From: Solirubrobacterales bacterium
Lineage (GTDB): Bacteria; Actinomycetota; Thermoleophilia; Solirubrobacterales; Solirubrobacteraceae
NCBI GenBank assembly: GCA_025964155.1
Contig: JAOPZJ010000379.1
Coordinates: 1 to 40,956, forward strand
Length of the DNA stretch: 40,956 nt
Direction of reading: 5' to 3'
Under the pieces are notes generated by a model. It did not search any database. It was not told the DNA's origin and worked only from the letters and a program-made list of their open reading frames with translations. Position numbers and translations under genes: made by a program. How positions within the stretch are numbered: the stretch's first letter is position 1; each line of letters opens with the position of its first letter. Shown piece after piece: positions 1 to 40,673 of the stretch.

Positions 1-480
1 GGCGGGGTGCGCGGCGCCGAGGCGGCGACGCTGGCCATCATGGCCGGCGGCCCGACCGCCGCGCTCGACCGCGCCCAGCCGCTCTTCGACGTCCTCGGGG
101 CCGAGACCTACCGCTTCGGCGAGCGACCCGGCGCGAGCCAGGCGGCCAAGCTCGCCAATCAGGTGATGATGGCCGTGGCGATCGCCGGGACCCACGAGGG
201 CCTGGCGCTGGCCCGCGACTACGGCGTCGACGAGGCGACGGTCATCGACGCCATCGGCGCAAGCACCGGCGCCAGCTGGCCGCTGGCCCACTGGGATTGG
301 ATGCGCAGCCTGTGGGAGGAGTACGAGCCCGACAACGCACTGGACATCCTCGACAAGGATCTGCGCGCGGTCGTCGCGGCGGTGGCGACGCGGGACGTCG
401 ACCTGCCGGTCACCGACGCGGTGTTCACCCGCCTCACCGACCTGTGGGGCGCCGCGCGCCGTGCGGCGGCCGACCGATGA
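1..480 (+). CDS. 3-hydroxyisobutyrate dehydrogenase-like protein, C-terminal part (5' end outside window)
   Basis: The reading frame is open from base 1, so the gene is cut by the window edge; about 159 residues remain. The first visible residues (GGVRGAEAATLAIMAGG) match the substrate-binding segment that follows the DxPVSGG motif of beta-hydroxyacid dehydrogenases. The catalytic lysine sits in AAKLANQ, and an all-helical C-terminal NAD-binding domain follows. The N-terminal Rossmann domain lies upstream. The family oxidises 3-hydroxyisobutyrate or reduces tartronate semialdehyde with NAD(P). It ends 26 bases before the stop of the convergent FadR-type regulator, so it belongs to an operon that enters the window from the left. 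A full-length paralogue lies at 6306-7220. Exact substrate unknown. Confidence 0.85.
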   Translation, partial: GGVRGAEAATLAIMAGGPTAALDRAQPLFDVLGAETYRFGERPGASQAAKLANQVMMAVAIAGTHEGLALARDYGVDEATVIDAIGASTGASWPLAHWDWMRSLWEEYEPDNALDILDKDLRAVVAAVATRDVDLPVTDAVFTRLTDLWGAARRAAADR

Positions 481-506: not shown

Positions 507-1214
507 TCAGCGCAGGTCGAAGAAGCGGACGAAGTAGTCGAGGTGACGGGCCATCGCCTCCTGGGCGGCCGCGCCGTCGCCCGCCTCGACCGCCGCGACG
601 ATCTCGTCCAGGTGGGCGAAGATGCGGTCGCGTTCGACGCCCTGCACGTCGTCGCTGAAGCGCCGGAACGCCGTGGCCGTCGCCCCCGCGAAGCCGACGA
701 TCAGCGGGTTGTGGCCGCACTCGGCGAGCGCGCGGTGGAACGCGAGGTCGAGTGCCAGGACGTCGTCCTCCTCGCTCGGCGGCGCGGTGGGCTCGGGCAG
801 GGCGGCGCGCAGGCGCACCAGGTCCTCGTCGGTGCGGTGCTCGGCCGCCGCGGCCGCGCTGCGCAGCTCCAGCGCGTAGCGGACCTCGAACAGTTGCGCG
901 TACGTCAGGGTCTTCATGCTCAGCGACAGCGAGATCACCTCGGCGACGCTGGTGTCCAGCGCGCGCAACGACATCTCGGCCACCCGGTAGCCGCCGGTGC
1001 GCCCGCGGGAGGAGACGAGCACGTGCTCCGACCGCAGCGTGCGCAGCGCCTCGCGCACCGTCGGACGGCTGACGCCGAACATCTCGGCCAGCCGCTCCTC
1101 GCTGGGAAGCCGGTCCCCGGGCGCGAGCGTGCCGTCCAGGACCGACGCCTTGAGGTTCGCGGCGATCTGCTCCGGGGCGGACTGCACGCGGCGCGGCGTC
1201 AACGGGGAGGACAC
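507..1214 (-). CDS. FadR/FCD-type GntR transcriptional regulator (regulator 1)
   Basis: The protein has 235 residues. An N-terminal winged helix-turn-helix spans about residues 12-78, with the recognition region FGVSRPTVREALRTLR and wing GRTGGYRV. An FCD ligand-binding domain fills the rest; its likely metal-binding residues are in LDLAFHRALAECGHNP and the late RHLDYF. Such regulators bind a small acid or metal-acid complex and usually repress nearby catabolic genes. It is divergent from hyuA1, with 50 bases between the starts, so control of hyuA1-hyuB1 is likely. That spacer has a short dyad (1223-1232). It is clearly paralogous to the regulator at 12301-13011, sharing VLDGTL-PGDRLP and the HNP-IVGF block. 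The effector is unknown. Confidence 0.9.
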   Translation of the reverse strand: MSSPLTPRRVQSAPEQIAANLKASVLDGTLAPGDRLPSEERLAEMFGVSRPTVREALRTLRSEHVLVSSRGRTGGYRVAEMSLRALDTSVAEVISLSLSMKTLTYAQLFEVRYALELRSAAAAAEHRTDEDLVRLRAALPEPTAPPSEEDDVLALDLAFHRALAECGHNPLIVGFAGATATAFRRFSDDVQGVERDRIFAHLDEIVAAVEAGDGAAAQEAMARHLDYFVRFFDLR

Positions 1215-1264: not shown

Positions 1265-3352
1265 GTGACCTATCTGGTGGGCATCGACGTCGGGGGGACG
1301 TTCACGGACTTCGTGATCGTCGACGAGCGCGACCGCTCCTACCGCGCGCACAAGTCGCCGAGCACTCCGGCCGACCCGTCCGAGGGGCTGCTGCGCGGGC
1401 TGCGGGAGATCGCCGAGCTGCTCGGCCTGGCGCTCGAGGACTTCCTGGCCGAGCTGTCGCTGATCGTCCACGGCACGACGGTCACCACCAACGCCGTGCT
1501 CACGGGCCGCGGTGCGGGGACCGGCCTGCTCACGACCGAGGGCTTCCGCGACGTCCTGGAGATGCGGCGCGGCGTTCGCAGCCGCGAGCACCTGTACGAC
1601 AACACCTACGTCGCGCCGCCGCCGCTGGTGCCGCGCGCCCGGCGGCTGCCGGTGCCCGAGCGCGTCGACGCGGCCGGCGAGGTGCGCACGCCGCTCGATC
1701 GCGAGGCGCTGGCCCGAGCCGTCACCCAGCTCGTGGATGACGGGGTGGAGGCGCTCGCCGTGTGCTTCATGCACGCCTACGCCAACGACGAGCACGAGCG
1801 GCAGGCCCGAGCGGTGATCGAGGAGCTCGCGCCCGACCTCTTCCTGTCGGTGTCCAGTGAGGTGCTGCCGCAGGTGCGCATCAATGACCGGGTCAGCACC
1901 ACGGTGATGAACTCGTACGTCGGCCCGGTGCTGCGGCGCTACGTCGACCGCCTCGTCGCCGGCCTCGCCGAGCTCGGCTTCCCCGGGCTCCTGCTGGTCT
2001 TGCAGTCCAACGGCGGCGTCGCGACGCCGGAGCTCGTCAGCCGGCTGCCGGCGACGACGGTGCTCTCCGGGCCGGCGGGCGGCCCGGTCGCCGGGCTCGC
2101 GCACGCCCGCGAGCGCGGGGTGAGCGACTGCATCGTCGTCGACATGGGCGGGACGAGCTACGACGCCTCGATCGTCAAGGACGGCGAGGTACAGACCACC
2201 CGGGAGGGCGAGATCGACCGCCATCCGATCTCGCTGCCGATGACCGACGTGCACACGGTCGGGGCAGGTGGCGGGTCGATCGCGTGGCTCGACGACGGCG
2301 GCCTGCTGCATCTGGGCCCGCAGAGCGCCGGAGCTCATCCGGGCCCGGCCGCCTACGGCCGCGGCGGGACCGAGCCGACGTGCACCGACGCCGACCTCGT
2401 CCTCGGATACCTGGATCCGCAGTACTTCCTCGGCGGCCGGATGGCCCTGCGTCCCGACCTGGCGCGGGAGGCGATCGAGCGGAGGATCGCTCAGCCACTG
2501 GGCCTCGACGTCACCGCGGCGGCCGGCGCCATGCTCGAGGTCATCACGCTGATCATGGCGGCGGGGACCAAGGACATGGCCTTCAAGCGCGGCTTCGATC
2601 CGCGCGAGCTGCTGCTCGTCTCCGCGGGCGGGGCGGGCCCGCTGCACGCCGGGATGATCGCCGAGGAGCTCGACATCGAGCGCGTCGTCATCCCGCGGAT
2701 GTCGGCGGTCCTGTGTGCGTTCGGAATGCTGCTCGCCGACCTGCGCCACGACTACGTCCGCAGCTACAGCCGCCCGTGGGACCAGCTGGACCCGGCGCAC
2801 GCCGGTGACCTGGTCGACCGCATGGTCGCGACCGGGATGGCCGCGCTCGAGCAGGAGGGGATCGCGCCCGCCGACCGGTCCGCCGTCGGCAGCGCCGACC
2901 TGCGCTACCGCGGCCAGCACCACGAGGTGTCGGTGACCTTCGACCCGGCGAGCCTCTCGGCGGAGGGCCTGGGGGCAATCGAGGACGCGTTCCACCGGCG
3001 GCACGAGGAGCTCTACGGCTTCAGCTCCCGCGGGCGGCCGATGGACATCGTGTCGCTGCGGGCGACGACGCTCGGCCGCCGGCCCGACCTTCGCCTGCAG
3101 CCCGCCGCGGCCGGCGACCCGAGCCGCCTGCCGTGCCGGACGCCGCGGCCGGTGTACCTGCCCTCGACCGGCACGATGGAGACCGTTCAGGTCTACGACG
3201 GCGATCTGCTCGTCCCCGGCCACCGCATCGTCGGGCCGGCGGTCGTCGAAGCGGCGACGACCACGCTGTTCGTCCCGGAGCGCTTCGACGTCCTCGTCGA
3301 CCGGTCCGGCAACCTCATCATGCACCGCAAGGGCCTGGAGGAGCACATCTGA
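1265..3352 (+). CDS. hyuA: Hydantoinase/oxoprolinase family protein, subunit A (HyuA-type, copy 1)
   Basis: The protein has 695 residues, normal for the family. It carries the ASKHA-type ATPase signature at the N terminus (VGIDVGGTFTDFVIV), the family block VHGTTVTTNAVL (about residues 69-80) and the second phosphate motif VDMGGTSYDASIV. With a HyuB partner, such proteins hydrolyse or carboxylate cyclic amides and ketones at the cost of ATP: N-methylhydantoinase, 5-oxoprolinase, caprolactamase and acetophenone carboxylase all belong here. The GTG start at 1265 is chosen because it precedes the conserved N terminus directly and has GGGAG upstream. It overlaps hyuB1 by one base (TGATG). The substrate is not readable; only the family is certain. 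Confidence 0.93.
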   Translation: MTYLVGIDVGGTFTDFVIVDERDRSYRAHKSPSTPADPSEGLLRGLREIAELLGLALEDFLAELSLIVHGTTVTTNAVLTGRGAGTGLLTTEGFRDVLEMRRGVRSREHLYDNTYVAPPPLVPRARRLPVPERVDAAGEVRTPLDREALARAVTQLVDDGVEALAVCFMHAYANDEHERQARAVIEELAPDLFLSVSSEVLPQVRINDRVSTTVMNSYVGPVLRRYVDRLVAGLAELGFPGLLLVLQSNGGVATPELVSRLPATTVLSGPAGGPVAGLAHARERGVSDCIVVDMGGTSYDASIVKDGEVQTTREGEIDRHPISLPMTDVHTVGAGGGSIAWLDDGGLLHLGPQSAGAHPGPAAYGRGGTEPTCTDADLVLGYLDPQYFLGGRMALRPDLAREAIERRIAQPLGLDVTAAAGAMLEVITLIMAAGTKDMAFKRGFDPRELLLVSAGGAGPLHAGMIAEELDIERVVIPRMSAVLCAFGMLLADLRHDYVRSYSRPWDQLDPAHAGDLVDRMVATGMAALEQEGIAPADRSAVGSADLRYRGQHHEVSVTFDPASLSAEGLGAIEDAFHRRHEELYGFSSRGRPMDIVSLRATTLGRRPDLRLQPAAAGDPSRLPCRTPRPVYLPSTGTMETVQVYDGDLLVPGHRIVGPAVVEAATTTLFVPERFDVLVDRSGNLIMHRKGLEEHI

Positions 3353-5046
3353 TGCGTACTGATCCGATCCTCACCTCGATCGTCGCCAGCCGGCTGAAGA
3401 CCATCGGCGAGCGCATGGGCGTCGTCGTCGAGCGCAGCGCGCGCTCACCGCTGCTCGTCGAGGGGCGCGACTTCTCGGTCGGCATCTACGACGTGGACGG
3501 CACGCTCGTGGAGCAGACCGAGTACATCCCCGTGCTCGGGTACGCCACCACGCCGGCGATGAAGCACATCGCCGGGCGCTTCGCGGGGCGCGTGGCCGCC
3601 GGCGACGTGATCCTCCACAACGACCCGTACACCGGCGGCAACCAGCTGTCGGACTGGCGGGTCACGAAGCCCGTCTTCAACGCCGGCGAGCACGTGGCGT
3701 GGGTCGTCATCGTCGCCCACCAGGCGGACATCGGAGGGAACGTGCCGGGCTCCTACAACCCGTTCGCGACCGACATGTGGCAGGAGGGGCTCCGGATCAC
3801 CCCGGTGAAGCTCTACGACGCGGGGGTCCGCCGCGACGACGTCTGGGACCTCGTCTTCGGCAACGTGCGCCTCGACGTGGTGGCGGATGACGTGACCGCC
3901 ATGATCGGTGCCTGCACCGTCGGCGAGCGCGAGCTCGTCGCCCTGCTCGAGCGCTACGGCATCGAGCGCTACCGCACCGCCGTCGCCGGGCTTCTGGACG
4001 CGGCGGAGAGCAGCGCCCGGGTCGTCATCAACGGGATCGCCGACGGCGTCTACCGCGCCGACTGGGTCGTCCACGACGACGGCATCGACCACGACGGGCG
4101 GTGGACGATCCGCCTCGCCGTCACGGTCGCCGGGGACCGCATGACGTTCGACTTCGCGGGGACCGACGACCAGGCGACCGGGTACATCAACACCCCGCGT
4201 GCCGTGACGATCTCCGCGGTGATGATCGCCTTCTTCATGGTCGCCGAGGATGAGCTGCCCCACAACGACGGCGTCCTGCGCTGCATCGACGTGCTGACGC
4301 CGGAGGGCAGCCTCGTGAACCCGCGCTTCCCCGCGCCCACCTGCTTCGGCAACCACGTCGCCGACCAGCTTGCGGCGGTGATCATGCTGGCGCTCGTCGA
4401 CGCCGTGCCACGCCGCGTTACCGCCGCCTGGAACCACCTGCTCGCGTCGATCGTCAGCGGCTGGGACGAGCGCGTGCAGGCGCCGTACGTCGACATCCTC
4501 ATCAACGCCTGCAAGGGCGGCGGCGGCGCGACCTTCGGCGCCGACGGCTACGACCACATCGGGCTGATCGGCTCCGGCGGCGCGATCGCGGCGCAGGACC
4601 CGGAAATGTTCGAGGTCGTCAACCCGCACCTGCTGCACCGCTTCGAGTACCTGCCGGACTCGGCCGGAGCCGGCACCTGGCGCGGTGGCCTGGGCGTGAT
4701 CACCGAGCTCGAGTTCCTCGACGACGGCGCGCAGATGAGCATCTTCGGGGACGGCGACACGGAAGCGACGACGGCGTTCGGCATCCTGGGCGGCACCAGC
4801 GGCTCCACGAACGAGATCACGTTCACCTACCCCGACGGGACGGTCCACCGGCCGCGGCTGAAGGACCTGGTCTCGGACATCCCGCGCGGCACGATCTACC
4901 GCCAGCGGGCAGGCGGCGGGGGCGGATACGGGCACCCCAGCGAGCGACCGCGCGAGCGCGTCCACGCGGACGTCGTGAACGGCGTGCTGTCGGTGGAGCG
5001 TGCGCGCGAGCTGTACGGGTACGAGCCCGACGCGCCGGCGGGGTAG
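3352..5046 (+). CDS. hyuB: Hydantoinase B/oxoprolinase family protein, subunit B (HyuB-type, copy 1)
   Basis: The protein has 564 residues. It starts with the family pattern DPILTSIVASRL-IGERMG-ERSARSP-DFSVGIYD and continues with HNDPYTGGNQLSDW, the metal/substrate-binding HNDPY region typical of HyuB. It ends with the glycine-rich block AGGGGGYGHP and the terminal DVVNGVLSVERARELYG. It is the partner of HyuA, and the two subunits form one ATP-dependent enzyme. Its start codon shares a base with the hyuA1 stop, so translation is coupled. The stop lies only six bases from that of the convergent M28 peptidase, and no hairpin separates them. The reaction is the same open question as for HyuA copy 1. 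Confidence 0.93.
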   Translation: MRTDPILTSIVASRLKTIGERMGVVVERSARSPLLVEGRDFSVGIYDVDGTLVEQTEYIPVLGYATTPAMKHIAGRFAGRVAAGDVILHNDPYTGGNQLSDWRVTKPVFNAGEHVAWVVIVAHQADIGGNVPGSYNPFATDMWQEGLRITPVKLYDAGVRRDDVWDLVFGNVRLDVVADDVTAMIGACTVGERELVALLERYGIERYRTAVAGLLDAAESSARVVINGIADGVYRADWVVHDDGIDHDGRWTIRLAVTVAGDRMTFDFAGTDDQATGYINTPRAVTISAVMIAFFMVAEDELPHNDGVLRCIDVLTPEGSLVNPRFPAPTCFGNHVADQLAAVIMLALVDAVPRRVTAAWNHLLASIVSGWDERVQAPYVDILINACKGGGGATFGADGYDHIGLIGSGGAIAAQDPEMFEVVNPHLLHRFEYLPDSAGAGTWRGGLGVITELEFLDDGAQMSIFGDGDTEATTAFGILGGTSGSTNEITFTYPDGTVHRPRLKDLVSDIPRGTIYRQRAGGGGGYGHPSERPRERVHADVVNGVLSVERARELYGYEPDAPAG

Positions 5047-5052
5047 CGCCGC

Positions 5053-6309
5053 TCACCGACAGGGAGGCAGCTCCCCGCCTTCGGCGGTCGCCAGCCACAG
5101 AGCGACCGAGGCGCCCGCGCGGGCGTCCTGCGCCAGACGCGTCGGATCGACCCACCGCGGGACGTCGCCGGCGCTGTGGTAGTACGGGTGCGGCGGCGGG
5201 TGGCGCCAGAGCAGGCAGGTCTCGACGCCCGCGTCGGCGAACGGCGCGTTGTCGGTATAGGGGAAGTTTCGGGCGTCGATCGACTGCTCGGCGTGCCACC
5301 CGGTGCGGGCCGCGCATGCGACCGCCGCGTCCCGGAGCCCCGGCGTGGCGATCACCGTGCGCGTTGCGTCGACGGGTGGGCCGAGCGCGTCGAAGTTGAC
5401 CATGCCTGCCATCGTGGCGGGGTCGCCGGCCGTCACGTGATGGGCGGCGCCCCAGGCGGCGGGCTCCTCGGCAGCGAAGGCGACGAACGTCATCGTCCGG
5501 CGGAACGGGAGCGCGCTCCAGCCGCGGGCCAGGGCCAGCAGTGCGGCCAGGCCGGTGGCGTTGTCCGACGCACCCGGGCTCTCGCGCTGCGTGTCGTAAT
5601 GGGCGCCGACGACGACCCGCTCCCCGGGCGTGGTGTCGCCGCGGATCTCGCCCACGACGTTCGCGGTCGTGCGCTCGGCGTACGCGGCGACGTGCCGCAC
5701 CGTGACCCGGACGGGGCCGGCCACGAGGGCGGCGAGCAGCCGCCCGCCGGCGCGTGCCTCCACCGAGACGCCGGGGAAGTCGAGCACCCGGCCCGTCCAC
5801 GGCGGACCGGCCGGCGCGGGGTGGAAGGTCGCCGTGAAGTGCCCGACCAGGCCGTCCGGCGTCGCGCCGACGTGCACGAGCGCCGCGATCCCGTGCCCGG
5901 CCAGGCGCGTCGCGACCGCCAGCACGAGGTCGGCACGAACGACGACAACCCGGCCCCGCAGGTCGATGCCGGCTGTCCGCGCCGCGTCGATCTCCTCCGC
6001 GGACCCCGCCCCGAGGAAGAGCGCCTCGCCGGCCGCCTCCGCGGCGGCCGTCCCCTGCAGGCCGGCACAGGGAAGCTGCAGGCCGTCGTCGGTGACGCAG
6101 CTCGCCTCGTCTGGCAGGTAGGCGAGGTAGCGGAAGCGCTCGTGCCGAACCGCGGCGAGTCCGGCCGTCCCGAACGCCTCCGTGAGCAGGTCGCGGCAGT
6201 GGGTCTCGCCCGGGGTGCCGCAGAAGCGCGGGCCGAGCCCCGCGATCCGCTCGACGTCGGCGAAGAGGGCTCCGGCGTCGAGCGCAAGCGGGTCGGCGGA
6301 GTGGATCAG
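5053..6309 (-). CDS. M28-family metallopeptidase with PA-like insert, probable CTG start
   Basis: About 418 residues. The di-zinc site of M28 peptidases is visible: AHYDT (His237, Asp239), GASDNATG (Asp249), FAAEEP (Glu281-282), NFDALG (Asp307) and YYHSAGD (His378). A PA-like insert covers about residues 95-165. Members are aminopeptidases or carboxypeptidases acting on small peptides or N-acyl amino acids. No signal peptide is visible, so it is probably cytoplasmic. The frame has no ATG, GTG or TTG near the conserved N terminus. A CTG at 6309 overlaps the upstream stop in the arrangement CTGA, mirroring the ATGA overlaps of the same operon, and is the best start. The next ATG (6495) would read through about 190 bases of the upstream gene in arginine-rich shadow sequence. 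It is the last gene of the creatinase-like/hyuB2/hyuA2 operon. Confidence 0.85.
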   Translation of the reverse strand: MIHSADPLALDAGALFADVERIAGLGPRFCGTPGETHCRDLLTEAFGTAGLAAVRHERFRYLAYLPDEASCVTDDGLQLPCAGLQGTAAAEAAGEALFLGAGSAEEIDAARTAGIDLRGRVVVVRADLVLAVATRLAGHGIAALVHVGATPDGLVGHFTATFHPAPAGPPWTGRVLDFPGVSVEARAGGRLLAALVAGPVRVTVRHVAAYAERTTANVVGEIRGDTTPGERVVVGAHYDTQRESPGASDNATGLAALLALARGWSALPFRRTMTFVAFAAEEPAAWGAAHHVTAGDPATMAGMVNFDALGPPVDATRTVIATPGLRDAAVACAARTGWHAEQSIDARNFPYTDNAPFADAGVETCLLWRHPPPHPYYHSAGDVPRWVDPTRLAQDARAGASVALWLATAEGGELPPCR

Positions 6310-7220
6310 GGTGCGTCCTGGATGAGGAGCGTCGCACCCGTCTCCTCGGCGCGCAGAGCGACGAGCACGGAGAAGTCGCGGTCGCCGTAGCCGCGGTCGC
6401 GCACCTCCTCGAACGTCTCCTGAGCCAGCTTGCCGGCCCGCAACGGCACGCCGATCTCGGCGGCGTAGGTCTCGAGCAGGCCCATGTCCTTGCACATGAG
6501 GCGCACGGCGAAGTCCGCCTCGGTCCTGCCGGCCAGGACGGTGCGCGGCATCCAGTCGCTGAGGATCCAGCTGGCCCCACTGCCGCCGTCGATCGCCTCG
6601 CGCACGCGGTCCACGTCGGCGCCGGCCTTCGCCGCCAGCGCGAGCCCCTCGGCGATGCCGACGGCGATCACGGAACCCATCAGGTTGTTCGCGAGCTTCG
6701 CGATCTCGCCGTGGCCCACCGGGCCGACGTGCACCGGTCGCCCCATGGTCTCCAGGACGTTCCGGCAGCGCGCGTACGCCTCGGGATCGGCGCCGACCAT
6801 GATCGCGAGCTCGCCCTGGCGCGCGACGACCGGCCCGCCGCTGACCGGCGTGTCCAGGATCCCGACGCCGAGCGGGGCCAGGCGCGCGGCGAGCGCCTGC
6901 GGCGTCGCGGGCAGCACGGTGCTGGCGACGAGCACCGAGGCGCCCTCCGCCAGGCCGGCCTCCAGCCCGTCCTCGCCGTCCAGACAGGCCAGGATCTCCG
7001 GCGTGTCGGGCAGCAGGAGCAGGATCACGTCGCAGGCGGCGGCGAGCTCGCGCGGCGTCGCCGCGGCCGTGATGCCGAACGGGGCGAGTGCCTCGACGCG
7101 CGCCGGGTCCAGGTCGTGGGCGTGGACGGCGAAGCCCTGCTCGGCGAGCCGTTCAGCGATGCCCGCGCCGAGCGAGCCGACGCCGAGAACGCCGCAGGTC
7201 TGCTTCATGTCAGCGGACAT
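6306..7220 (-). CDS. 3-hydroxyisobutyrate dehydrogenase / tartronate semialdehyde reductase-like protein
   Basis: A complete 304-residue beta-hydroxyacid dehydrogenase. It has the Rossmann motif GVLGVGSLGAG (residues 10-20), the substrate motif DTPVSGGPVVARQG (about 123-136), the catalytic Lys175 in GEIAKLANN and the helical C-terminal domain. The acidic residue after beta-2 (HAHDLDP) suggests NAD+ rather than NADP+. ATG 7220 overlaps the hyuA2 stop by one base (TGATG); a second ATG four codons in (7208) is also possible. It is the fourth gene of the operon starting at 12215, so it probably processes a hydroxy acid or semialdehyde arising after HyuAB action. It is a paralogue of the partial gene at window position 1. 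Substrate unknown. Confidence 0.9.
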   Translation of the reverse strand: MSADMKQTCGVLGVGSLGAGIAERLAEQGFAVHAHDLDPARVEALAPFGITAAATPRELAAACDVILLLLPDTPEILACLDGEDGLEAGLAEGASVLVASTVLPATPQALAARLAPLGVGILDTPVSGGPVVARQGELAIMVGADPEAYARCRNVLETMGRPVHVGPVGHGEIAKLANNLMGSVIAVGIAEGLALAAKAGADVDRVREAIDGGSGASWILSDWMPRTVLAGRTEADFAVRLMCKDMGLLETYAAEIGVPLRAGKLAQETFEEVRDRGYGDRDFSVLVALRAEETGATLLIQDAP

Positions 7221-9307
7221 CACGCCACCACCCCATGGAGCTGGGCGGCAAACGCCGCGCCGCGTTCGCCGCTGTGGACGGCGAAGGCACCGTAGGCGTC
7301 CACGTCGAGCGTGAAGTGCTCGGGGACGACGATCGTCGTGCTCGAGAGCTCGACGATCGCGGGGCCGTTGAACGTGAAGCCCGCCGGCAGCGCCGACCCG
7401 TCCCACACCGGGGCGTCGACGAGCGCGCGCTCGGTGGCGGACCAGACGGGCCGCGTCCCGATCTGCACATCGCGGTCCGGATCCACCTCGTCGGTCCCGG
7501 TGAGCCCGGGCTTTTCGGTGCGCCCGATAGCGCCGAGCCGCACGGCGAGCACCTCCACCGGGGCGCCCGGTGAGGCATGGCCAAAGAGGCGGTCGTGCTC
7601 GCGGTGGAAGGCCTCGGCGGCCTCGGTGAGGTCGAGCGGCAGCTCGACCGCGACCGTGAGCTCGTGCCATTGGCCGATGTAGCGGAGGTCCAGGGCGGCG
7701 CGCAGCTCGATCCGGTCGGCCGGCACGCCCTCGCGTTTCAGCGTGTCGCGGCCCGTCGTGCCCATGTCGTCGAACAGCGCGGCAAGCTGGGCGCCGTCGG
7801 CGGCGGCCAGCGCTGCCTTGTACGCGCGCACGTAGTCGTGCTTGAAGTCGGACATCAGCATGCCGGCGGCGCAGAAGATCGACGACTCCCGCGGGACGAG
7901 CAGGGCCGGGATGTCGAGCTCACGGGCGATCGCCGCCGCGTGCAGCGGGCCAGCGCCGCCCGCCACGACGAGCGGGAAGTCACGCGGGTCAAGGCCGCGC
8001 CGCACGCTGATGTCGCGCACGCCTGTCGCCATCGTCACGTTCACGAGGTCGTAGACGCCGGCCGCCGTCTGGTCCACCGTCAAGCCCAGCCGTTCCGCCA
8101 GCGGGGTGAAGGCCGCCACGGCGGCGGCGCGATCGAGCGTCATGCCGCCGTGGCGGAAGGACTCCTCGCCGAGGTCGCCGAGCACGAGGTCGGCGTCGGT
8201 GACCGTGGGCTGGGTCCCGCCGCGGCCGTAGCAGGCGGGGCCCGGCTGGGCGCCCGCGCTCTGTGGGCCGACATGCAGCAGCCCGCCGTCGTCGAGCCAG
8301 GCGATCGAGCCGCCGCCGGCGCCGATCGTGTGGATGTCGATTGTCGGCAGCGCGAGGCGCCAGCGGTCGACGATGCCGTCGACCATCAGCAGCGGCTCGC
8401 CGTCACTCACGAGGGCGGCGTCGAAGCTCGTGCCGCCCATGTCGACGGTGATGCAGTCCTTCAGGCCGTGCGGCGCGAGCTGCCAGAGGCCGGCGGTCGG
8501 TCCCGAGGCCGGGCCAGACAGCAGCGACAGCGCGGCACGCTCGCTGATCTCCGCGGGCGTCGCGACGCCGCCGTTGGACTGCATGATGAGGAGCGTCCCA
8601 CCGAAGGCGAGGTCGCGCAGGCGCCCGGTGAGCGCGTCCAGGTAGCGCGAGATGATCGGCCCGACGTAGGCGTTGAGCACGGTCGTGCTCGTGCGGTCGT
8701 AGTAGCGCACCTGCGGCAGCAGGTCGCTGGACGCGGTGACGTACACGTCCGGCAGCAGCTCGGCGAGCAGATCGCGGGCACGGGCCTCGTGGTCGGCGTT
8801 CGCCGGCGAGTGCATGAAGGAGATCGCGACCGCCTCGACCTCGTCGTGCGCGAACGCGGCCGCGGCGGCGCGCACGTCCTCCTCGTGCAGCGGCTCCAGC
8901 TCCTTGCCACTGAAGTCCAGCCGGCCGCCGACGGGCAGGCGCCCGTGGCGCGGGACCAGCGGCCGGGGCGGCTGCAGGCGGTTGTCGTAGGGCTCCTCGC
9001 GGGTGCCGTCGCGCAGCGCCAGGACGTCGCGGAAGCCCTCGGTGACGAGCAGCCCGGTCCGCGCGCCGCGGTGGGTCAGGACCGCGTTCGTGGTGACCGT
9101 CGTGCCGTGCACGATCAGGTCGAGCTGCGCGACGAAGGCGCCGAGGTCGAGGCCGAGCTGCCCCGCGATCTCCTCCAGGCCGGTGACGAAGCCGCGCGAG
9201 GGGTCGTCCGGCGTGGAGCTCGTCTTGTGGACGAGGCGCACCTCATCGCCGATGAGGAGGAAGTCGGTGAAGGTGCCGCCCACGTCGATGCCGATGCGAT
9301 AGCTCAT
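7220..9307 (-). CDS. hyuA: Hydantoinase/oxoprolinase family protein, subunit A (HyuA-type, copy 2)
   Basis: The protein has 695 residues. The same motifs as copy 1 are present: IGIDVGGTFTDFLLIG, VHGTTVTTNAVL and VDMGGTSFDAALV, plus the GAGGGSIAWLDDGGLLHVGP block that both copies share almost exactly. It is the ATP-handling subunit of a HyuAB enzyme. ATG 9307 overlaps the hyuB2 stop in an ATGA arrangement, so the order here is B then A, the reverse of the first pair. The middle and C-terminal parts differ clearly from copy 1, so this is an old paralogue and probably has a different substrate. The overlap downstream couples it to the dehydrogenase gene. Confidence 0.93.
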   Translation of the reverse strand: MSYRIGIDVGGTFTDFLLIGDEVRLVHKTSSTPDDPSRGFVTGLEEIAGQLGLDLGAFVAQLDLIVHGTTVTTNAVLTHRGARTGLLVTEGFRDVLALRDGTREEPYDNRLQPPRPLVPRHGRLPVGGRLDFSGKELEPLHEEDVRAAAAAFAHDEVEAVAISFMHSPANADHEARARDLLAELLPDVYVTASSDLLPQVRYYDRTSTTVLNAYVGPIISRYLDALTGRLRDLAFGGTLLIMQSNGGVATPAEISERAALSLLSGPASGPTAGLWQLAPHGLKDCITVDMGGTSFDAALVSDGEPLLMVDGIVDRWRLALPTIDIHTIGAGGGSIAWLDDGGLLHVGPQSAGAQPGPACYGRGGTQPTVTDADLVLGDLGEESFRHGGMTLDRAAAVAAFTPLAERLGLTVDQTAAGVYDLVNVTMATGVRDISVRRGLDPRDFPLVVAGGAGPLHAAAIARELDIPALLVPRESSIFCAAGMLMSDFKHDYVRAYKAALAAADGAQLAALFDDMGTTGRDTLKREGVPADRIELRAALDLRYIGQWHELTVAVELPLDLTEAAEAFHREHDRLFGHASPGAPVEVLAVRLGAIGRTEKPGLTGTDEVDPDRDVQIGTRPVWSATERALVDAPVWDGSALPAGFTFNGPAIVELSSTTIVVPEHFTLDVDAYGAFAVHSGERGAAFAAQLHGVVA

Positions 9308-11061
9308 ACCCGTGCCTCCGCCCGCAGGCGCTGTGTCTCGTCTTCGTCGATGGTCCGGCCGTCGGCGCTGACCGCGACGCCGTAGTCGCGGGCGGCCGCG
9401 TCGCGGCCCAGCAGGCCGTCGCGCACCTCGGCGCGCACCAGCTCGGGGTCGCGCAGGAAGGCGTCCCCGTACCCGCCGCCGCCGCCGTTGACGGACTCGC
9501 AGACGGTGCCGGGCGGGATGTGGTCGATGATTTCCTTCGAGCCCCAGTCGCGGACGCTGCCGTCCGGGAGCCGCAGCCGCAGCTCGTTGAGGCTGCCGGG
9601 GCCGCCGCCGAACAGGCCGTGGGCCGGCTCGGCGCCCTCGGAGGCCATGTCGTCGCCGATGGTCGTCCCCGCCTCGTTCTCGCCGTAGAAGGTCCAGCTC
9701 GAGCGGGTGCCGTACCCGCCGCGCCATTCGCCGTGGCCGGCAGAGTCCGGCAGGTACTCGTTGTAGTGCATGAGGTGGGGGGTGGAGAGCTCGAACATCT
9801 CCATGTCGGGGGACCGCATGCTGCCGGGCGTGCCGGTGAATCCGAGCGCGTCGTAGCCGTCGGCGCCGCGCATCGCGCCGGGGCCGCCGCGCTGGAAGAT
9901 CGTCAGGGAGACGGACGGTTCGCCGGTGCGCGGATCGGTCGCGCTCAGAGCCGTGCACAGGAACTGGTTCCAGCCGGCCGTGACGCGGTCGGGCAGGATC
10001 TCGGCGAGCGCGCGCATGATCGACTCCAGGACCTCGTCGCACATCTGGTTGCCGAAGATCGTCGACGCCGGGAAGTGCGGGTCGATCAGGGAACCCTTGC
10101 GGAAGACCGTGTGGATCGGGGCGAACAGCCCGTGGTTGGCGGGCGTGGACAGCCCGCCCGCAGTGACCAGCATCAGGAAGGCGATGCGGATCGCGCCGAT
10201 CGCGGCCGCCGCGGGCATGTTCGTAAAGCCGGGCGCCTGGTCGTCGGTCTCGCTGAAGTCGAAGGTGATCTCCGACCCGGCGATCGTCACGGCGACCGCG
10301 ATCCGGTAGCGCTTGGAGGGGTCCAGGCCGTCGGACTGCATGAAGCTCTCGCCGTGGTAGGTCCCGTCGGGCCAGCGCTCGATCTCGGCGCGCACCTGCC
10401 GCTCGGAGGCGTCGATCACGTAGTCCATGTGCGTGTCGAACGAGGCCACGCCGTAGCGCTCGAGGACGGCGCCGAGGCGTCGCTTGCCGATCGTGCAGGC
10501 GCCGATCATCGCCTTGATGTCCTCGGCCACGATCTCCAGGCGGATGTTCGCGCGGACAAGGTCCCACACGTCGCGGCGGAGCTTGCCCTGCTCCTGGATC
10601 TTCAGCGGCGGGATGCGGAACGCCTCCTGCCAGACGTCGCGGGCGCGCGGATCGTAGCCGCCGGCCGTCATGCCGCCGATGTCGGCGACGTGGCCCTTGC
10701 TCGCGCTCCAGGCCACGAGCTCGCCCTCAAAGAAGATGGGGAGGAAGACGCCGACGTCGGCGTTCTGGTTGCCGCCGGTGTAGACGTCGTTGTGGAGGAT
10801 GACGTCCCCGTCGTGCAGGTCCTCGCCGAAGTACTCGATGATGTGCGCGAGCGGCGGCTGGGCGCCGTTGGCGATGATCGACGCGTACTCCGTCTGCGCG
10901 AGCGTGCGGCCCTGGCGGTCGAAGATCACGGTGACCAGGTCGCCGATCTCGTTGAAGATCGGTGAGCGCGAGGAGCGCATGAGAACGGTGGCCATCTCGT
11001 GCGTGATGGCCTGAACGCGCCGCTGCAGCACGGACGCGAGGATCGGATCGGCTGAGCTCAT
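9304..11061 (-). CDS. hyuB: Hydantoinase B/oxoprolinase family protein, subunit B (HyuB-type, copy 2)
   Basis: The protein has 585 residues, about 20 more than copy 1. Family marks are DPILASVLQRRVQAITHEM at the start, LMRSSRSPIFNE, the HNDVYTGGNQNAD metal/substrate region (copy 1 has HNDPY), and NGGGGGYGDAFLRDPE near the C terminus. It works with HyuA copy 2. ATG 11061 overlaps the stop of the creatinase-like gene by four bases, and its own stop overlaps the hyuA2 start by four. Both overlaps show one polycistronic message. The proline-to-valine change in the HND-Y motif sets the two B subunits apart. Confidence 0.93.
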   Translation of the reverse strand: MSSADPILASVLQRRVQAITHEMATVLMRSSRSPIFNEIGDLVTVIFDRQGRTLAQTEYASIIANGAQPPLAHIIEYFGEDLHDGDVILHNDVYTGGNQNADVGVFLPIFFEGELVAWSASKGHVADIGGMTAGGYDPRARDVWQEAFRIPPLKIQEQGKLRRDVWDLVRANIRLEIVAEDIKAMIGACTIGKRRLGAVLERYGVASFDTHMDYVIDASERQVRAEIERWPDGTYHGESFMQSDGLDPSKRYRIAVAVTIAGSEITFDFSETDDQAPGFTNMPAAAAIGAIRIAFLMLVTAGGLSTPANHGLFAPIHTVFRKGSLIDPHFPASTIFGNQMCDEVLESIMRALAEILPDRVTAGWNQFLCTALSATDPRTGEPSVSLTIFQRGGPGAMRGADGYDALGFTGTPGSMRSPDMEMFELSTPHLMHYNEYLPDSAGHGEWRGGYGTRSSWTFYGENEAGTTIGDDMASEGAEPAHGLFGGGPGSLNELRLRLPDGSVRDWGSKEIIDHIPPGTVCESVNGGGGGYGDAFLRDPELVRAEVRDGLLGRDAAARDYGVAVSADGRTIDEDETQRLRAEARV

Positions 11062-12215
11062 CGGACCTTCCAGATATCGCGTGAAACCGCGGAAACGGGG
11101 GATGCGCCTGCGGGACCGACGACGAACGTGTCGGCCATGTAGCCGATCGCGCGTTTGTCGTCGTCGATGACGAACGGGTGCAGGGAGAGGACCATGCCCG
11201 CGGCGAGCGGGTCGGGCGGCGGCGCGTCGCGGTCCTGCACGACGTCTAGGCCGACCCAGGGCTCCTCGATGACGTCCTGGCCGATCCCGTGGCCCGACCA
11301 GTAGGCGCAGCCGGCGCCGTGGCCGGCGACCGCGGCGACGATCGCGCTCTGGGTGGCGTCGGGCGTGTCGCCGGCGCGCAGGGCGCCGGCGCCGGCGTCG
11401 AGCCCGGAGCGCACCGCTGCGTTCATGCGCAGTTGCAGCTCGTCGGGCTCGCCGACGCAGACCATCCGGGACAGCTCCATCCAGTAGCCGAGCGGGCCGA
11501 CGAGCTCGAAGGAGAACGTGTGCATGTCCCCTCGCTGCAGGACGCGGTCCGCCGGCTGGCCGAAGTGCCCGGAGACGGTGCCGTCGCCGAGGGGGCGGCC
11601 GTACATGGTCAGGAACAGCAGGTCCTCGCCGCCGAGCGCGAGCGCCCGGGCCGCGACCTCGGCGCCGATCGTCCGCTCGCTCACGCCGCTGCCAGCGACC
11701 TCGAGCAGCCGCTCGAAGGAGGCGTCGGCGATGCGTGTCGCCTCGCGGACGCCCTCTAGCTCGGTCGGCGACTTGGCCGCGCGGAGCCGCTCGAACGCCG
11801 GGCTCGCGTCGATGATCTCGGCGTCGGGGAAGGCGGCGCGGATCGCCAGGTAGTCCTCCACTTTCATGATCTGGCCAAGGCCGACGATCCCGATCCGCCC
11901 GGGCGTACCGGTGGCGCGCAGTGCATCCGCGAGCCCGTCGCCCATGTGCCGGACGTGGTCGACCGGCGTGTCCCAGTCCCCGACCGGGTTCATCGCGAGG
12001 TTCACCGGGAGCAGCAGACGCGGCTCGCGCCCAGGGGCGGCGATCGCGTAGCCGTAGCGGTGGGCGAGGTTGAGGTCGCCGACCCACCGGAGCGTGCCCT
12101 TATGACCGCGGTAGTCGTTGGCGGCGAGCACGAGCACGTCAAGCTGCTGCTCGCGCAGGAGCTGTTGCAGGAGCTCCCAGCGGCGGTCGCGTTCGGCGAG
12201 GGGTAGGGCGGTCAT
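11058..12215 (-). CDS. Creatinase/Xaa-Pro peptidase-fold protein (M24) lacking most metal ligands
   Basis: The protein has 385 residues: an N-terminal creatinase-type domain (about 1-145) and a C-terminal pita-bread domain (150-385) with SGHGIGQDV (His309) and GMVLSLHPFV. Of the five metal ligands of methionine aminopeptidase-type members only His309 is in place. The two aspartates become Ser/Glu (HTFSFELVG, ELSRM with Glu247), and the last two glutamates become His346 and Ala361. Creatinase, a metal-free C-N hydrolase of this fold, has similar substitutions, and His217 and Glu247 could take its base and substrate-binding roles. ATG 12215 is chosen because the fold begins right after it. It is the first gene of the hyuB2-hyuA2 operon, so it may hydrolyse the ring-opened amide product. 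Function inferred. Confidence 0.82.
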   Translation of the reverse strand: MTALPLAERDRRWELLQQLLREQQLDVLVLAANDYRGHKGTLRWVGDLNLAHRYGYAIAAPGREPRLLLPVNLAMNPVGDWDTPVDHVRHMGDGLADALRATGTPGRIGIVGLGQIMKVEDYLAIRAAFPDAEIIDASPAFERLRAAKSPTELEGVREATRIADASFERLLEVAGSGVSERTIGAEVAARALALGGEDLLFLTMYGRPLGDGTVSGHFGQPADRVLQRGDMHTFSFELVGPLGYWMELSRMVCVGEPDELQLRMNAAVRSGLDAGAGALRAGDTPDATQSAIVAAVAGHGAGCAYWSGHGIGQDVIEEPWVGLDVVQDRDAPPPDPLAAGMVLSLHPFVIDDDKRAIGYMADTFVVGPAGASPVSAVSRDIWKVR

Positions 12216-12300: not shown

Positions 12301-13011
12301 ATGAGCGTCACGTTCGGTCGGCGGACGGTCCTCTCGGCTCCGCAGCAGATCTGCGCCTCGATCGAGGCGCTCGTGCTCGACGGCACGCTCCGGCCCGGCG
12401 ACCGCTTGCCACGGGTCGACCTGATGGCAGAGCGCTTCGGCGTGTCGGCGCCGACCGCCCATCGGGCGCTACGGTCGCTGCGCGAGGCGGGCGTGCTGGC
12501 GGCGACCCGGGGCCGCAACGGCGGCTACCGCGTCACCTCGGCTGCGCTCGACGCGATCGACGCCGGCGGCGAGGAGTGGCTCGCGGTGCCGACGTCCGTG
12601 GGGTACGCGCAGCTCCTCGAGGTCCGCGAGGTCCAGGACGTGCTGACCGCGCGCGCGGCCGCCGCCAAGCGCACGGAGGCCGACATCGACGCGCTCGAGG
12701 CGGTGTTGCCGTCGACGCTGCCCGCGGACCCCGAGGTCGCGTTTGCGCTCGACCTGCGCTTCCACCGGTCGCTCGCCCAGTGCACCCACAACCCGGTCAT
12801 CGTCGGCTTCACGGGTGCGACCGCGCTGGCGCTGCGGCGCTTCCCGCGATCGAGCGAGCTCGCGCCCGCCGAGATCGTCGCGGAGCTCGATGGCGTCGCC
12901 AGCGCGATCCGCCGGCGCGACGGCAACGCGGCGGCGCAGGCGATGCGCCGCCATCTGCGCCGGTCGGCGGACTTCTTCGACCGCGCTTCCCTGCCACCGC
13001 TCGATGCCTGA
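12301..13011 (+). CDS. FadR/FCD-type GntR transcriptional regulator (regulator 2)
   Basis: The protein has 236 residues with an N-terminal winged helix (about 14-80) and an FCD domain (about 95-230). The recognition region reads FGVSAPTAHRALRSLR; the usual PTVREAL is altered to PTAHRAL, so its operator may differ from that of regulator 1. The FCD block LDLRFHRSLAQCTHNPVIVGF and the late RHLRRSADFF supply the likely metal ligands. ATG 12301 directly follows a TACAGT box with nine bases between, suggesting a very short leader. It overlaps the SDR gene by eight bases, so it is co-transcribed with SDR and the carboxymuconolactone-decarboxylase-like gene. Divergent to the creatinase-like operon, it probably regulates that operon and itself. 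Confidence 0.9.
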   Translation: MSVTFGRRTVLSAPQQICASIEALVLDGTLRPGDRLPRVDLMAERFGVSAPTAHRALRSLREAGVLAATRGRNGGYRVTSAALDAIDAGGEEWLAVPTSVGYAQLLEVREVQDVLTARAAAAKRTEADIDALEAVLPSTLPADPEVAFALDLRFHRSLAQCTHNPVIVGFTGATALALRRFPRSSELAPAEIVAELDGVASAIRRRDGNAAAQAMRRHLRRSADFFDRASLPPLDA

Positions 13012-13753
13012 GCCGCTGCCCTTCGCCGGCCGGGTCGCGATCGTGACCGGCGCCGGCCGGGGCACCGGGCAGGCCATCGCGGCCACGCTCGGCGCCCGCG
13101 GGGCCCGTGTCGTCGTCGCTGACATCGACGGTGCGGCCGCCGCACGAGTCGCGCACGAGCTCGGCCCCCGCGGCGTCCCCGCGACGGTCGACGTCGCGGA
13201 CTGGGCCGCCGTGCACGCACTCGTGGACGACACCGTGGTGCGGGAGGGCCGGCTCGACGTGCTCGTCAACAACGCCGCCCGCAGCGTCGCACGGAGCTTT
13301 TGGGAGATCGACCCGGACGAGTGGGACAGCGTCATCGCGACGAACCTGCGCAGCGTGTTCGCCGGATGCCGGGCCGCCGGCGCCCACATGCGCGAGCGCG
13401 GAGTGGGCCGCATCGTCAACCTCGCGTCGCTCGCCGGGCAGCAGGGCGGGGTCAACGGCGGGGCGCACTACGCGGCGTCCAAAGCCGGCATCGTCGTGCT
13501 CACGAAGATCGCGGCGGCCGAGCTGGCCGGCAGCGGCGTGACCGTGAACGCCATCGCCCCGGCCGCGATCTCCGGGCCGATCCTGGATGCGCTGCCCGTC
13601 GAGCGCCAGGCGGCCATCGCCGCGTCGATCCCCGTCGGCCGTGTCGGCCGCCCCGAGGAAGTGGCCGCCACCGTGGCGTTCCTCGTCTCCGACGAGGCGG
13701 CGTACATCACCGGCACGACGATCGACGTCAACGGCGGCCTCTTCATGCGCTGA
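13004..13753 (+). CDS. Short-chain dehydrogenase/reductase (FabG-like)
   Basis: A classical 249-residue SDR. The cofactor motif is TGAGRGTG (15-22); the NNAA motif is at 89-92; the catalytic residues are Ser142 (NLASLAG), Tyr156 and Lys160 (YAASK). Asp40 after beta-2 (VVVADIDG) favours NAD+. Such enzymes interconvert alcohols and ketones, including 3-oxoacyl or hydroxy-acid substrates. The start ATG lies inside the end of regulator 2 (8-base overlap), which shows coupling. Neighbouring carboxymuconolactone-decarboxylase-like and beta-oxidation genes suggest a role in the same catabolic path. The substrate cannot be deduced. Confidence 0.92.
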   Translation: MPEPLPFAGRVAIVTGAGRGTGQAIAATLGARGARVVVADIDGAAAARVAHELGPRGVPATVDVADWAAVHALVDDTVVREGRLDVLVNNAARSVARSFWEIDPDEWDSVIATNLRSVFAGCRAAGAHMRERGVGRIVNLASLAGQQGGVNGGAHYAASKAGIVVLTKIAAAELAGSGVTVNAIAPAAISGPILDALPVERQAAIAASIPVGRVGRPEEVAATVAFLVSDEAAYITGTTIDVNGGLFMR

Positions 13754-13779
13754 CCAGACCGAGAGAACCGAGAGGACCC

Positions 13780-14184
13780 ATGACCGAGTCACACCAGGAC
13801 CGCCGCGCCCGCGGTGTCGCCGCGTTCGCCAGCCAGTTCGACCTGCCCGAGGGTGAGGTCGTGGCGTTCATGGACAACATGCTCGGGCCGTGTATGGCCG
13901 AGGAGGCGCAGCGGGCGAACGCGGCCGCGTGGACCGATGATGCCCTCTCGATGCGCGACCGCAGTCTCGTCGTCATTGCGAGTCTTGTCACCCAAGGGGG
14001 CGTGGAGCCGCGGCTGCGGGGCCACCTGCAATGGGCGATCCGCAACGGGGTCACCCGAGCCGAGCTGGACGCGCTGATGGCGATGCTCGCGGTCTACGTC
14101 GGCTATCCGAAGGCCTCCACGGGCATGCAGCTGCTGCGCGAGGAGCTCGGACCGGGCGAAGGCGAGGCCGGCGATGCCCGCTGA
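13780..14184 (+). CDS. Carboxymuconolactone decarboxylase-family protein
   Basis: The protein has 134 residues. The segment RDRSLVVIASLVTQGG-PRLRGHLQWAIRNGVTRAELDALM (about residues 63-105) is the hallmark of gamma-carboxymuconolactone decarboxylases, with the conserved His in GHLQWA. No CxxC pair is present, so it is not an AhpD-type peroxidase. The true PcaC reaction decarboxylates an intermediate of protocatechuate breakdown, but most family members outside pca operons have unknown roles. GAGAGG lies about nine bases before the ATG. It follows the SDR gene by 26 bases and overlaps a short SRPBCC-like stump at its end. Confidence 0.85.
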   Translation: MTESHQDRRARGVAAFASQFDLPEGEVVAFMDNMLGPCMAEEAQRANAAAWTDDALSMRDRSLVVIASLVTQGGVEPRLRGHLQWAIRNGVTRAELDALMAMLAVYVGYPKASTGMQLLREELGPGEGEAGDAR

Positions 14185-14287: not shown

Positions 14288-14322
14288 CATATCAGCGGGG
14301 TAAAGTGTTGTATGTTTGCACC
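14283..14322 (+). promoter_or_regulatory. Thiolase operon promoter with perfect 5-bp-arm dyad
   Basis: The inverted repeat GCTGA-CATA-TCAGC occupies 14283-14296. A -10-like TATGTT (14311-14316) lies six bases before the ATG at 14323, so the message is probably leaderless. The dyad then falls about 27-40 bases before the start, where a repressor would block the -35 region. The stop codon of the SRPBCC-like stump lies inside the dyad. Operator function is inferred; a FadR-type regulator from this window is a natural candidate. Confidence 0.45.
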
Positions 14323-18535: not shown

Positions 18536-18856
18536 GTGACGTTCCATCGTGGTATCGACGAGCCGGGCCCGATCCGCCCCGGGCCGGTGGGGGGACTGGC
18601 CGGGGCCTACGACCATCGGCAGCGCACGAGATCCTCGCGCCTGGCCGTCGGGACGCTCGCCTGCCCGGCGTGCGATGCGCCGGTGCTCCCGGCCGGCCGC
18701 CCGATGACCCCGGCGGACCGGATCGTGTGTCCCGTCTGCCATGAGACCGGGGTGGTGCGGGACTTCCTGTCTCTCGCCACGCCGACGCGGCCGGCCCGCG
18801 TCGTCGTGCGCGTGATCCAGTCGCCGGTGGGCGCGGGCCGTCGCCAGCGTCAGTAG
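18536..18856 (+). CDS. Small zinc-ribbon-like protein
   Basis: A 106-residue basic protein. Two cysteine pairs, Cys43-x2-Cys46 (LACPACDAP) and Cys65-x2-Cys68 (IVCPVCHE), 19 residues apart, make a zinc ribbon. The N-terminal 40 residues are Gly/Pro/Arg-rich and probably unstructured; the C terminus ends in a basic [11 protein letters not shown] 18536 is chosen because TAGACT stands seven bases upstream and the frame has no better start before the ribbon. Its stop overlaps that of the convergent response regulator by a few bases. Zinc ribbons bind nucleic acid or protein partners; the partner is unknown. The shared promoter region links it to the divergent unknown gene. Confidence 0.65.
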
Positions 18857-22090: not shown

Positions 22091-22223
22091 TGCTCGGGGG
22101 CGCGCGATCACCGTGCCACGACCCGAAATGGGACACTAGCGACATTCCTCCGACGCACTGGTTTGTGTTGATGTGTGTACGCAGACGCCGCTCAAGTGGC
22201 ACATGGTGTCCCGCTTTCCCCGG

Positions 22224-23312: not shown

Positions 23313-23328
23313 CAGCGGCGCTCCGGCA

Positions 23329-24840: not shown

Positions 24841-25766
<926 letters not shown>

Positions 25767-25794
25767 CAGTGCTGGTCCTTGGTCGTGGTGGAGG

Positions 25795-27447: not shown

Positions 27448-27505
27448 GGGGTGCCCTCGCCGCTCGCGCACGGAATCCGAGCGCCCTGGGCGAGGCATTT
27501 CGCCG

Positions 27506-40667: not shown

Positions 40668-40673
40668 CGGCGC

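What the first reader, a model, noticed from the sequence alone, without database searches (positions are those of the whole stretch)
1265..12215. Two unlike HyuAB enzymes side by side, with reversed subunit order and a creatinase-like leader gene
hyuA1-hyuB1 (plus) and hyuB2-hyuA2 (minus) meet tail to tail, separated by a dehydrogenase and a peptidase gene. The pairs are diverged: B1 has HNDPYTGG, B2 has HNDVYTGG. Each has its own adjacent FadR-type regulator. HyuAB-type enzymes use ATP to open hydantoins, 5-oxoproline or lactams such as caprolactam, or to carboxylate ketones. The second pair is co-translated with a creatinase-fold protein, a hydroxy-acid dehydrogenase and an M28 peptidase, and the beta-oxidation genes lie close by. 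This looks like an unassigned pathway for one or two cyclic amides or imides: ring opening, C-N hydrolysis, hydroxy-acid oxidation, then CoA-linked breakdown. The substrate and order of steps are inference.
Basis: partly seen in the sequence, partly recalled or inferred. Interest (0 to 1): 0.72.

Follow-up and report, generated by a model that had tools for sequence, protein, structure and literature searches.

The report
Paired ATP-dependent lactam-opening enzyme operons
A soil actinobacterium carries two related gene cassettes for ATP-driven enzymes that probably pry open a stable nitrogen ring, and close relatives of one cassette sit in a known gene cluster for degrading skatole, where they may fill a missing step.

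Summary
The window carries hyuA1-hyuB1 (+) and M24-hyuB2-hyuA2-dehydrogenase-M28 (-), meeting tail to tail, each pair with its own FCD/GntR regulator. The window is one whole contig of a Solirubrobacterales MAG.

The pairs are ancient paralogous cassettes: A1/A2 51% identical, B1/B2 44%, regulators 48%. Both keep every tested catalytic motif of the CapAB lactamase family but form two clades distinct from caprolactamase and far from N-methylhydantoinase.

M24-B2-A2 is conserved in many actinobacteria, and A1-B1, where present, is usually linked to it. In Rhodococcus aetherivorans the M24-HyuB-HyuA triad lies inside the published skatole (ska) cluster, just behind SkaA. SkaA makes 3-methyloxindole, a lactam; the steps after it are open. 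Twelve loci also carry aniline-dioxygenase-type genes.

Best explanation: HyuB2A2, with the M24 protein, opens an oxindole-type aryl lactam to an arylamine acid; pair 1 acts on a related ring or step. The hydantoin reading is not supported, and the M28 and beta-oxidation genes are not part of the conserved core. The window's genome has no SkaA or aniline-type glutamine synthetase, so its own substrate stays unknown. New variant of a known kind.

The parts
1..480 (+). 3' end of a second 3-hydroxyisobutyrate-dehydrogenase-family gene (DH2), cut by the contig edge
   Evidence: 69% identical to DH2 at the same place in Conexibacter MAG L043; readable protein in frame 1
507..1214 (-). reg1: FCD/GntR regulator of cassette 1
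   Evidence: Pfam FCD 4e-23, GntR 2e-19; beside A1 or its M24 partner in G164, G084, G108 and G013, near the B2 block in G132
1265..3352 (+). hyuA1: ATP-binding subunit of lactamase-type pair 1
   Evidence: Pfam Hydantoinase_A 2e-91; DVGGTFTDF, DMGGT, GAHPGP motifs; best PDB 6yra CapA
3352..5046 (+). hyuB1: metal/hydrolysis subunit of pair 1
   Evidence: Pfam Hydantoinase_B 7e-145; all four CapB metal ligands kept; own clade of 13 rows
5053..6309 (-). M28 peptidase, probable CTG start overlapping the dehydrogenase stop; accessory
   Evidence: Pfam M28 2e-26; one orthologue among 7 relatives, in G108 beside an ABC transporter of the same type and a CMD gene
6306..7220 (-). DH: 3-HIBDH-family dehydrogenase of cassette 2
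   Evidence: Pfam NAD_binding_2/11; follows A2 in G164, G163, G084, G227
7220..9307 (-). hyuA2: ATP-binding subunit of pair 2, orthologue of a ska-cluster gene (skaK by order)
   Evidence: Pfam Hydantoinase_A 4e-90; 61% to R. aetherivorans ska cluster
9304..11061 (-). hyuB2: metal/hydrolysis subunit of pair 2, orthologue of a ska-cluster gene (skaJ by order)
   Evidence: Pfam Hydantoinase_B 1e-136; 67% to R. aetherivorans; own clade of 25 rows, all actinobacterial
11058..12215 (-). M24-fold protein, orthologue of a ska-cluster gene (skaI by order)
   Evidence: Pfam M24 6e-22; predicted pita-bread fold, pLDDT 88.5; altered metal-ligand positions
12301..13011 (+). reg2: FCD/GntR regulator of cassette 2
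   Evidence: Pfam FCD 1e-17; beside M24 in G164 and G084
13300..14184 (+). carboxymuconolactone-decarboxylase-family gene; start uncertain
   Evidence: Pfam CMD 6e-14; near reg2 in G164 and G084
14305..17460 (+). thiolase (3-oxoadipyl-CoA type), 3-hydroxyacyl-CoA dehydrogenase and enoyl-CoA hydratase genes; adjacent, not shown to belong
   Evidence: Pfam and NCBIfam; not found as a set beside the block in relatives

Best explanation
Two paralogous catabolic cassettes, each with an FCD regulator, a CapAB-type ATP-dependent lactamase (HyuA activates the amide with ATP, HyuB hydrolyses it at a metal site) and a 3-HIBDH-type dehydrogenase. HyuB2A2, translated together with a non-peptidase M24-fold protein, most probably opens the lactam ring of an oxindole or closely related aryl lactam to give an arylamine carboxylic acid. 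HyuA1B1 probably acts on a related ring or an adjoining step of the same pathway. Shown by sequence: gene content, motifs, clades, conserved linkage and orthology to the ska cluster. Inferred: the oxindole-type substrate, the order of steps, and the roles of M24 and of the dehydrogenases.
For: M24-B2-A2 is conserved across Actinomycetota. In R. aetherivorans DSM 44752 it lies directly behind SkaA in gene order C-D-Z-E-F/G-H-A-I-J-K-R-L-B; the gap between the skaA stop and the skaB start computes to 7,057 bp, against 7,058 bp in PMC13101512. [quoted passage not shown] A group-E flavin monooxygenase gene lies within about 13 kb of B2 in eight independent genomes. Aniline-type glutamine synthetase lies within about 7 kb of B2 in 12 of 25 B2-bearing genomes, with Rieske dioxygenase genes, and with catechol 1,2-dioxygenase in Arthrobacter. 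In Solirubrobacter pratensis the neighbour is a molybdenum hydroxylase, a class known to turn N-heteroaromatics into lactams. Pair 1 and pair 2 lie about 5-14 kb apart in 7 genomes besides the window. HyuAB-type IaaCE was proposed to hydrolyse 2-oxoindolacetate (PMC8453981). Motifs and tree.
Against: The window's genome has no group-E monooxygenase and no aniline-type glutamine synthetase, and neither do the Conexibacter or Solirubrobacter relatives, which are more complete assemblies; this lineage may use a different lactam. No biochemistry is known to me for any of these HyuAB or M24 proteins. M24 is missing upstream of B2 in Solirubrobacter pratensis and Arthrobacter CAU 1506. IaaCE could not be placed in the tree. 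By plain identity HyuB2 is as close to N-methylhydantoinase (33.6%) as to CapB (32.2%).
Confidence: 0.5

Rival explanations
1. The pairs are aliphatic lactamases (caprolactam or valerolactam type); the amino acid product goes through dicarboxylate beta-oxidation using the neighbouring 3-oxoadipyl-CoA-type thiolase, 3-hydroxyacyl-CoA dehydrogenase and enoyl-CoA hydratase.
For: CapA/CapB are the best NCBIfam matches for both pairs and 6yra the best PDB match for pair 1; the thiolase is 3-oxoadipyl-CoA like.
Against: Scores fall below the curated cut-offs (656 and 683, 389 and 344, against 1000). The CapB vicinal cysteine pair, which lines the putative caprolactam pocket, is absent. The thiolase set is not found with the block in relatives. 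No aminotransferase was seen among the genes scanned.
Confidence: 0.15
2. Hydantoin, N-methylhydantoin or creatinine-type pathway: HyuAB opens the ring and the M24 protein acts like creatinase on the carbamoyl or amidino product.
For: Family names; N-methylhydantoinase is the second-best PDB match for HyuA1 and HyuB1; M24 has the creatinase fold; an NCS1-type permease, a family that includes hydantoin transporters, is in several loci.
Against: N-methylhydantoinase falls in a distant part of the HyuB tree and has Gln where both window pairs keep the CapB metal-ligand His. M24 is under 20% identical to creatinase in the structure alignment. Conserved neighbours in other genomes are aromatic and indole oxidation genes.
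Confidence: 0.1
3. The HyuAB pairs carboxylate a ketone or other carbon acid, as acetone and acetophenone carboxylases do.
For: Shared fold and motifs; CapAB itself needs bicarbonate (PMC8453981).
Against: The extra small subunits of the carboxylases were not identified in the locus; HyuB1 and HyuB2 are only 24-28% identical to ApcD; the ApcD row is an extreme outlier in the tree.
Confidence: 0.06
4. Pairs 1 and 2 form one mixed enzyme, an (A1B1)(A2B2) assembly, rather than two enzymes.
For: Persistent genetic linkage; [quoted passage not shown]
Against: Opposed operons with separate regulators, a separate M24 partner for pair 1 in several genomes, and genomes with only one of the pairs.
Confidence: 0.07

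Closest known systems
ska cluster of Rhodococcus aetherivorans (PMC13101512), genes skaI-skaJ-skaK by order
   Same: Same three genes in the same order (M24, HyuB, HyuA), 46%, 67% and 61% identical to the window's
   Different: The window has no skaA/B, no dioxygenase, glutamine-synthetase or amidotransferase genes; it has a second HyuAB pair, FCD regulators instead of LuxR, and 3-HIBDH-type dehydrogenases
Caprolactamase CapAB (6yra), Pseudomonas jessenii
   Same: Two-subunit ATP-dependent amide hydrolase family; all tested ATP motifs and metal ligands
   Different: 32-36% identical in HyuB, below NCBIfam cut-offs, no vicinal cysteines, separate clade
IaaCE hydantoinase-like hydrolase of Aromatoleum (described in PMC8453981)
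   Same: HyuAB-type enzyme proposed to open 2-oxoindolacetate
   Different: Anaerobic pathway; sequence not available here, relationship not tested
N-methylhydantoinase (7hk5)
   Same: Same superfamily
   Different: Fused single chain, distant in the tree, Gln at the CapB His124 position
Creatinase, ectoine hydrolase DoeA, prolidase (M24 family)
   Same: Predicted pita-bread fold, Foldseek probability 1.0
   Different: 16-22% identity; prolidase ligands D,D,H,E,E replaced by Ser or Glu, Glu, His, His, Ala

Membership tests
HyuAB / CapAB ATP-dependent amidohydrolase superfamily | Hydantoinase_A and Hydantoinase_B domains over full length | tested here: met
   Pfam E 1e-90 to 1e-145 for both pairs
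HyuAB / CapAB ATP-dependent amidohydrolase superfamily | ATP motifs DxGGTFTDF, DMGGT, GxxPGP in the A subunit | tested here: met
   Present in HyuA1 and HyuA2
HyuAB / CapAB ATP-dependent amidohydrolase superfamily | Four metal ligands Asp, His, Asp, His in the B subunit | tested here: met
   Aligned to CapB Asp41, His99, Asp102, His124 in both pairs
Caprolactamase | NCBIfam equivalog cut-off (1000 bits) | tested here: not met
   A 656 and 683, B 389 and 344 bits
Caprolactamase | Vicinal Cys410-Cys411 in the CapB pocket | tested here: not met
   Not conserved in B1 or B2
N-methylhydantoinase | Groups with the characterised enzyme | tested here: not met
   7hk5 lies in a different, well supported clade
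5-oxoprolinase | Groups with eukaryotic-type oxoprolinases | not tested
ska (skatole) cluster | M24-HyuB-HyuA module | tested here: met
   Orthologues in the same order
ska (skatole) cluster | Group-E monooxygenase and aniline-type dioxygenase/glutamine synthetase genes | tested here: not met
   No group-E monooxygenase or aniline-type glutamine synthetase in the window's genome; its one Rieske dioxygenase is only 38% identical
M24 metallopeptidase | Five canonical metal ligands | tested here: not met
   Only the central His is kept
Oxindole hydrolase | ATP-dependent opening of an oxindole lactam | not testable with these tools
   Needs an enzyme assay

The most novel reading that the evidence does not exclude
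M24-HyuB-HyuA is a previously unassigned enzyme module for aerobic opening of oxindole-type lactams, in which the M24 protein is a new kind of creatinase-fold enzyme with a Glu-Glu-His-His site working with the ATP-dependent lactamase. Together with the linked second triad it forms a general actinobacterial route for indole-derived lactams, filling the open step of skatole degradation.
Probability: 0.25. Interest if true: 0.7.

Novelty: new variant of a known kind. Interest (0 to 1): 0.5.

Why it matters
If right, a gene set annotated only as 'hydantoinase/oxoprolinase' becomes a specific candidate for the step after 3-methyloxindole in skatole and indole degradation, which the 2026 skatole paper leaves open. 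It gives a marker for a lactam-opening pathway across actinobacteria and a defined test in a cultured strain. It would also give the creatinase fold another non-peptidase role.

Tried and rejected
Hydantoin/creatinine pathway: rejected on tree and context. Caprolactam pathway: below cut-offs, no vicinal cysteines. Plasmid search with M24 gave no match; HyuB plasmid hits were at most 39% identical, and two inspected loci (Azoarcus pAZKH, Corynebacterium p48A) had unrelated neighbours. Proteobacterial outgroups of HyuB2 (Desulfobacula, Rhodospirillaceae) had TRAP transporter, CoA-ligase or carboxylase neighbours and did not help. Indoleacetate degradation papers searched for hydantoinase terms gave nothing. 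The preprint on aniline dioxygenase in R. ruber R1 and the DMU1 transcriptome paper are not held. My first search for M28 orthologues used a wrong frame; it was repeated correctly.
Full report
What is there. The window is an entire contig (C179, 40,956 bases) of a 4.69 Mb MAG, 89% complete, with relatives in Solirubrobacterales such as a Conexibacter MAG, Patulibacter medicamentivorans and Solirubrobacter pratensis. Genes of the second operon overlap by one to four bases (M24-B2-A2-DH, then M28 from a probable CTG), and A1-B1 overlap by one base. The left edge holds the end of a second 3-HIBDH-family gene.

Two paralogous cassettes. A1 and A2 are 50.6% identical, B1 and B2 43.7%, the two FCD regulators 48.5%. 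Each cassette so has a regulator, a HyuAB pair and a 3-HIBDH-type dehydrogenase, and the second also has M24. In a tree of 109 HyuB proteins, B1 falls in a 13-row clade and B2 in a 25-row, all-actinobacterial clade. Both lie in a 49-row group with 99% SH-aLRT support that excludes caprolactamase CapB, and N-methylhydantoinase is far away (quick method, midpoint root, no oxoprolinase or IaaCE). The same genome has a third, more distant HyuAB pair on contig C433.

Catalytic features. HyuA1 and HyuA2 carry DVGGTFTDF, DMGGT and GxxPGP. HyuB1 and HyuB2 keep all four CapB metal ligands and lack the CapB vicinal cysteines (roles from PMC8453981). NCBIfam names caprolactamase as the best match for both pairs but well under cut-off. 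Working like CapAB is therefore well supported; being caprolactamase is not.

The M24 protein. AlphaFold2 gives mean pLDDT 88.5. Foldseek matches prolidases, creatinase, ectoine hydrolase and DMSP lyase, nearly all at 16-22% identity. In the alignments the prolidase ligand positions read Ser or Glu, Glu, His, His, Ala, and the two Glu and two His are invariant in 23 proteins, including the paralogous M24 that partners pair 1 elsewhere. A peptidase role is unlikely; its reaction is unknown.

Conservation. The layout CMD-reg2-M24-B2-A2-DH / B1-A1-reg1-DH2 is found in the Conexibacter MAG, and in pieces in Patulibacter (two contigs), G163 and G108. M24-B2-A2 recurs in Georgenia, Nocardioides, Pseudonocardia, Arthrobacter, Cryobacterium, Leucobacter, Geodermatophilus, Microtetraspora and Rhodococcus. 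A second triad M24'-A1-B1 lies in the same locus in Nocardioides soli, two Pseudonocardia, Arthrobacter mangrovi and G160. Pairs 1 and 2 are about 5-14 kb apart in seven genomes besides the window; two Leucobacter have them apart. B2 itself is rare: no other of 396 genomes sampled across the phylum matched at a strict threshold. M28 has one orthologue among seven relatives, beside an ABC transporter of the same type, so it is accessory.

The link to skatole degradation. Neighbours in the wider set are Rieske dioxygenase alpha/beta, a glutamine-synthetase-like and a glutamine-amidotransferase-like gene, ferredoxin and reductase, with catechol 1,2-dioxygenase in Arthrobacter and Cryobacterium. 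That combination is the aniline dioxygenase signature (established knowledge; [quoted passage not shown] Group-E flavin monooxygenase genes lie within about 13 kb of B2 in eight independent genomes. In R. aetherivorans the gene order matches skaCDZEFGHAIJKRLB, and the skaA-skaB gap computes to 7,057 bp against the published 7,058. M24, HyuB and HyuA are then skaI, skaJ and skaK by order; the paper's Table S6 was not read. [quoted passage not shown] its main text does not mention a hydantoinase. A lactam made by SkaA next to an ATP-dependent lactamase gives a simple inference: the lactamase opens the oxindole ring. IaaCE, a HyuAB-type enzyme proposed for 2-oxoindolacetate in anaerobic Aromatoleum, is a precedent (PMC8453981).

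Limits. The window's genome and its closest relatives have the lactamase module, and several relatives have rbs-type ABC transporter genes beside it, but the window's genome, Conexibacter and Solirubrobacter have no group-E monooxygenase and no aniline-type glutamine synthetase. They may take up a ready-made lactam or make one otherwise; in Solirubrobacter pratensis the neighbour is a molybdenum hydroxylase. The dehydrogenases could oxidise a beta-hydroxy acid formed after ring opening, and amidase or M28 genes nearby could remove a conjugate, but both are speculation. The adjacent thiolase set may serve an aromatic pathway and was not found with the block elsewhere. The tree is a quick one, and the identity of HyuB2 to CapB and to N-methylhydantoinase is about equal, so the CapB-side placement rests on the tree.

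Verdict. Observation confirmed. Interpretation partly supported: ATP-dependent ring opening is likely, hydantoins are not. The family is known; the conserved M24 partnership, the doubled cassette and the proposed oxindole role make it a new variant of a known kind, testable in a cultured Rhodococcus.

Noticed in passing
   Followed up: yes
5053-6309: The M28 gene appears to start at CTG (CTGA overlap with the dehydrogenase stop); no ATG, GTG or TTG start lies between that stop and 5925.
   Followed up: partly
14305-17460: Thiolase closest to 3-oxoadipyl-CoA thiolases, a 3-hydroxyacyl-CoA dehydrogenase near the PaaH family and an enoyl-CoA hydratase; could be the tail of an aromatic pathway.
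   Followed up: partly
18850-22111: Response regulator, CHASE3 histidine kinase and a SpoIIE-type phosphatase with receiver domain in a row.
   Followed up: no
22224-30014: Pentose phosphate block: OpcA, zwf, 6-phosphogluconate dehydrogenase, phosphoglucose isomerase, transaldolase, ROK kinase.
   Followed up: no
39480-40886: MoeA-like molybdopterin biosynthesis gene at the right end of the contig.
   Followed up: no
L012 (G000:C433) 5152-8617: A third HyuAB pair in the same genome, only about 27-37% identical to the window's pairs.
   Followed up: partly
L050 7342-10229: In Solirubrobacter pratensis a molybdenum-hydroxylase pair sits divergently beside HyuB2-HyuA2-DH in place of M24.
   Followed up: partly
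L062 3426-3716: A conserved roughly 96-residue protein with no Pfam match sits between the dioxygenase beta subunit and the amidotransferase in many loci (skaZ by order).
   Followed up: no
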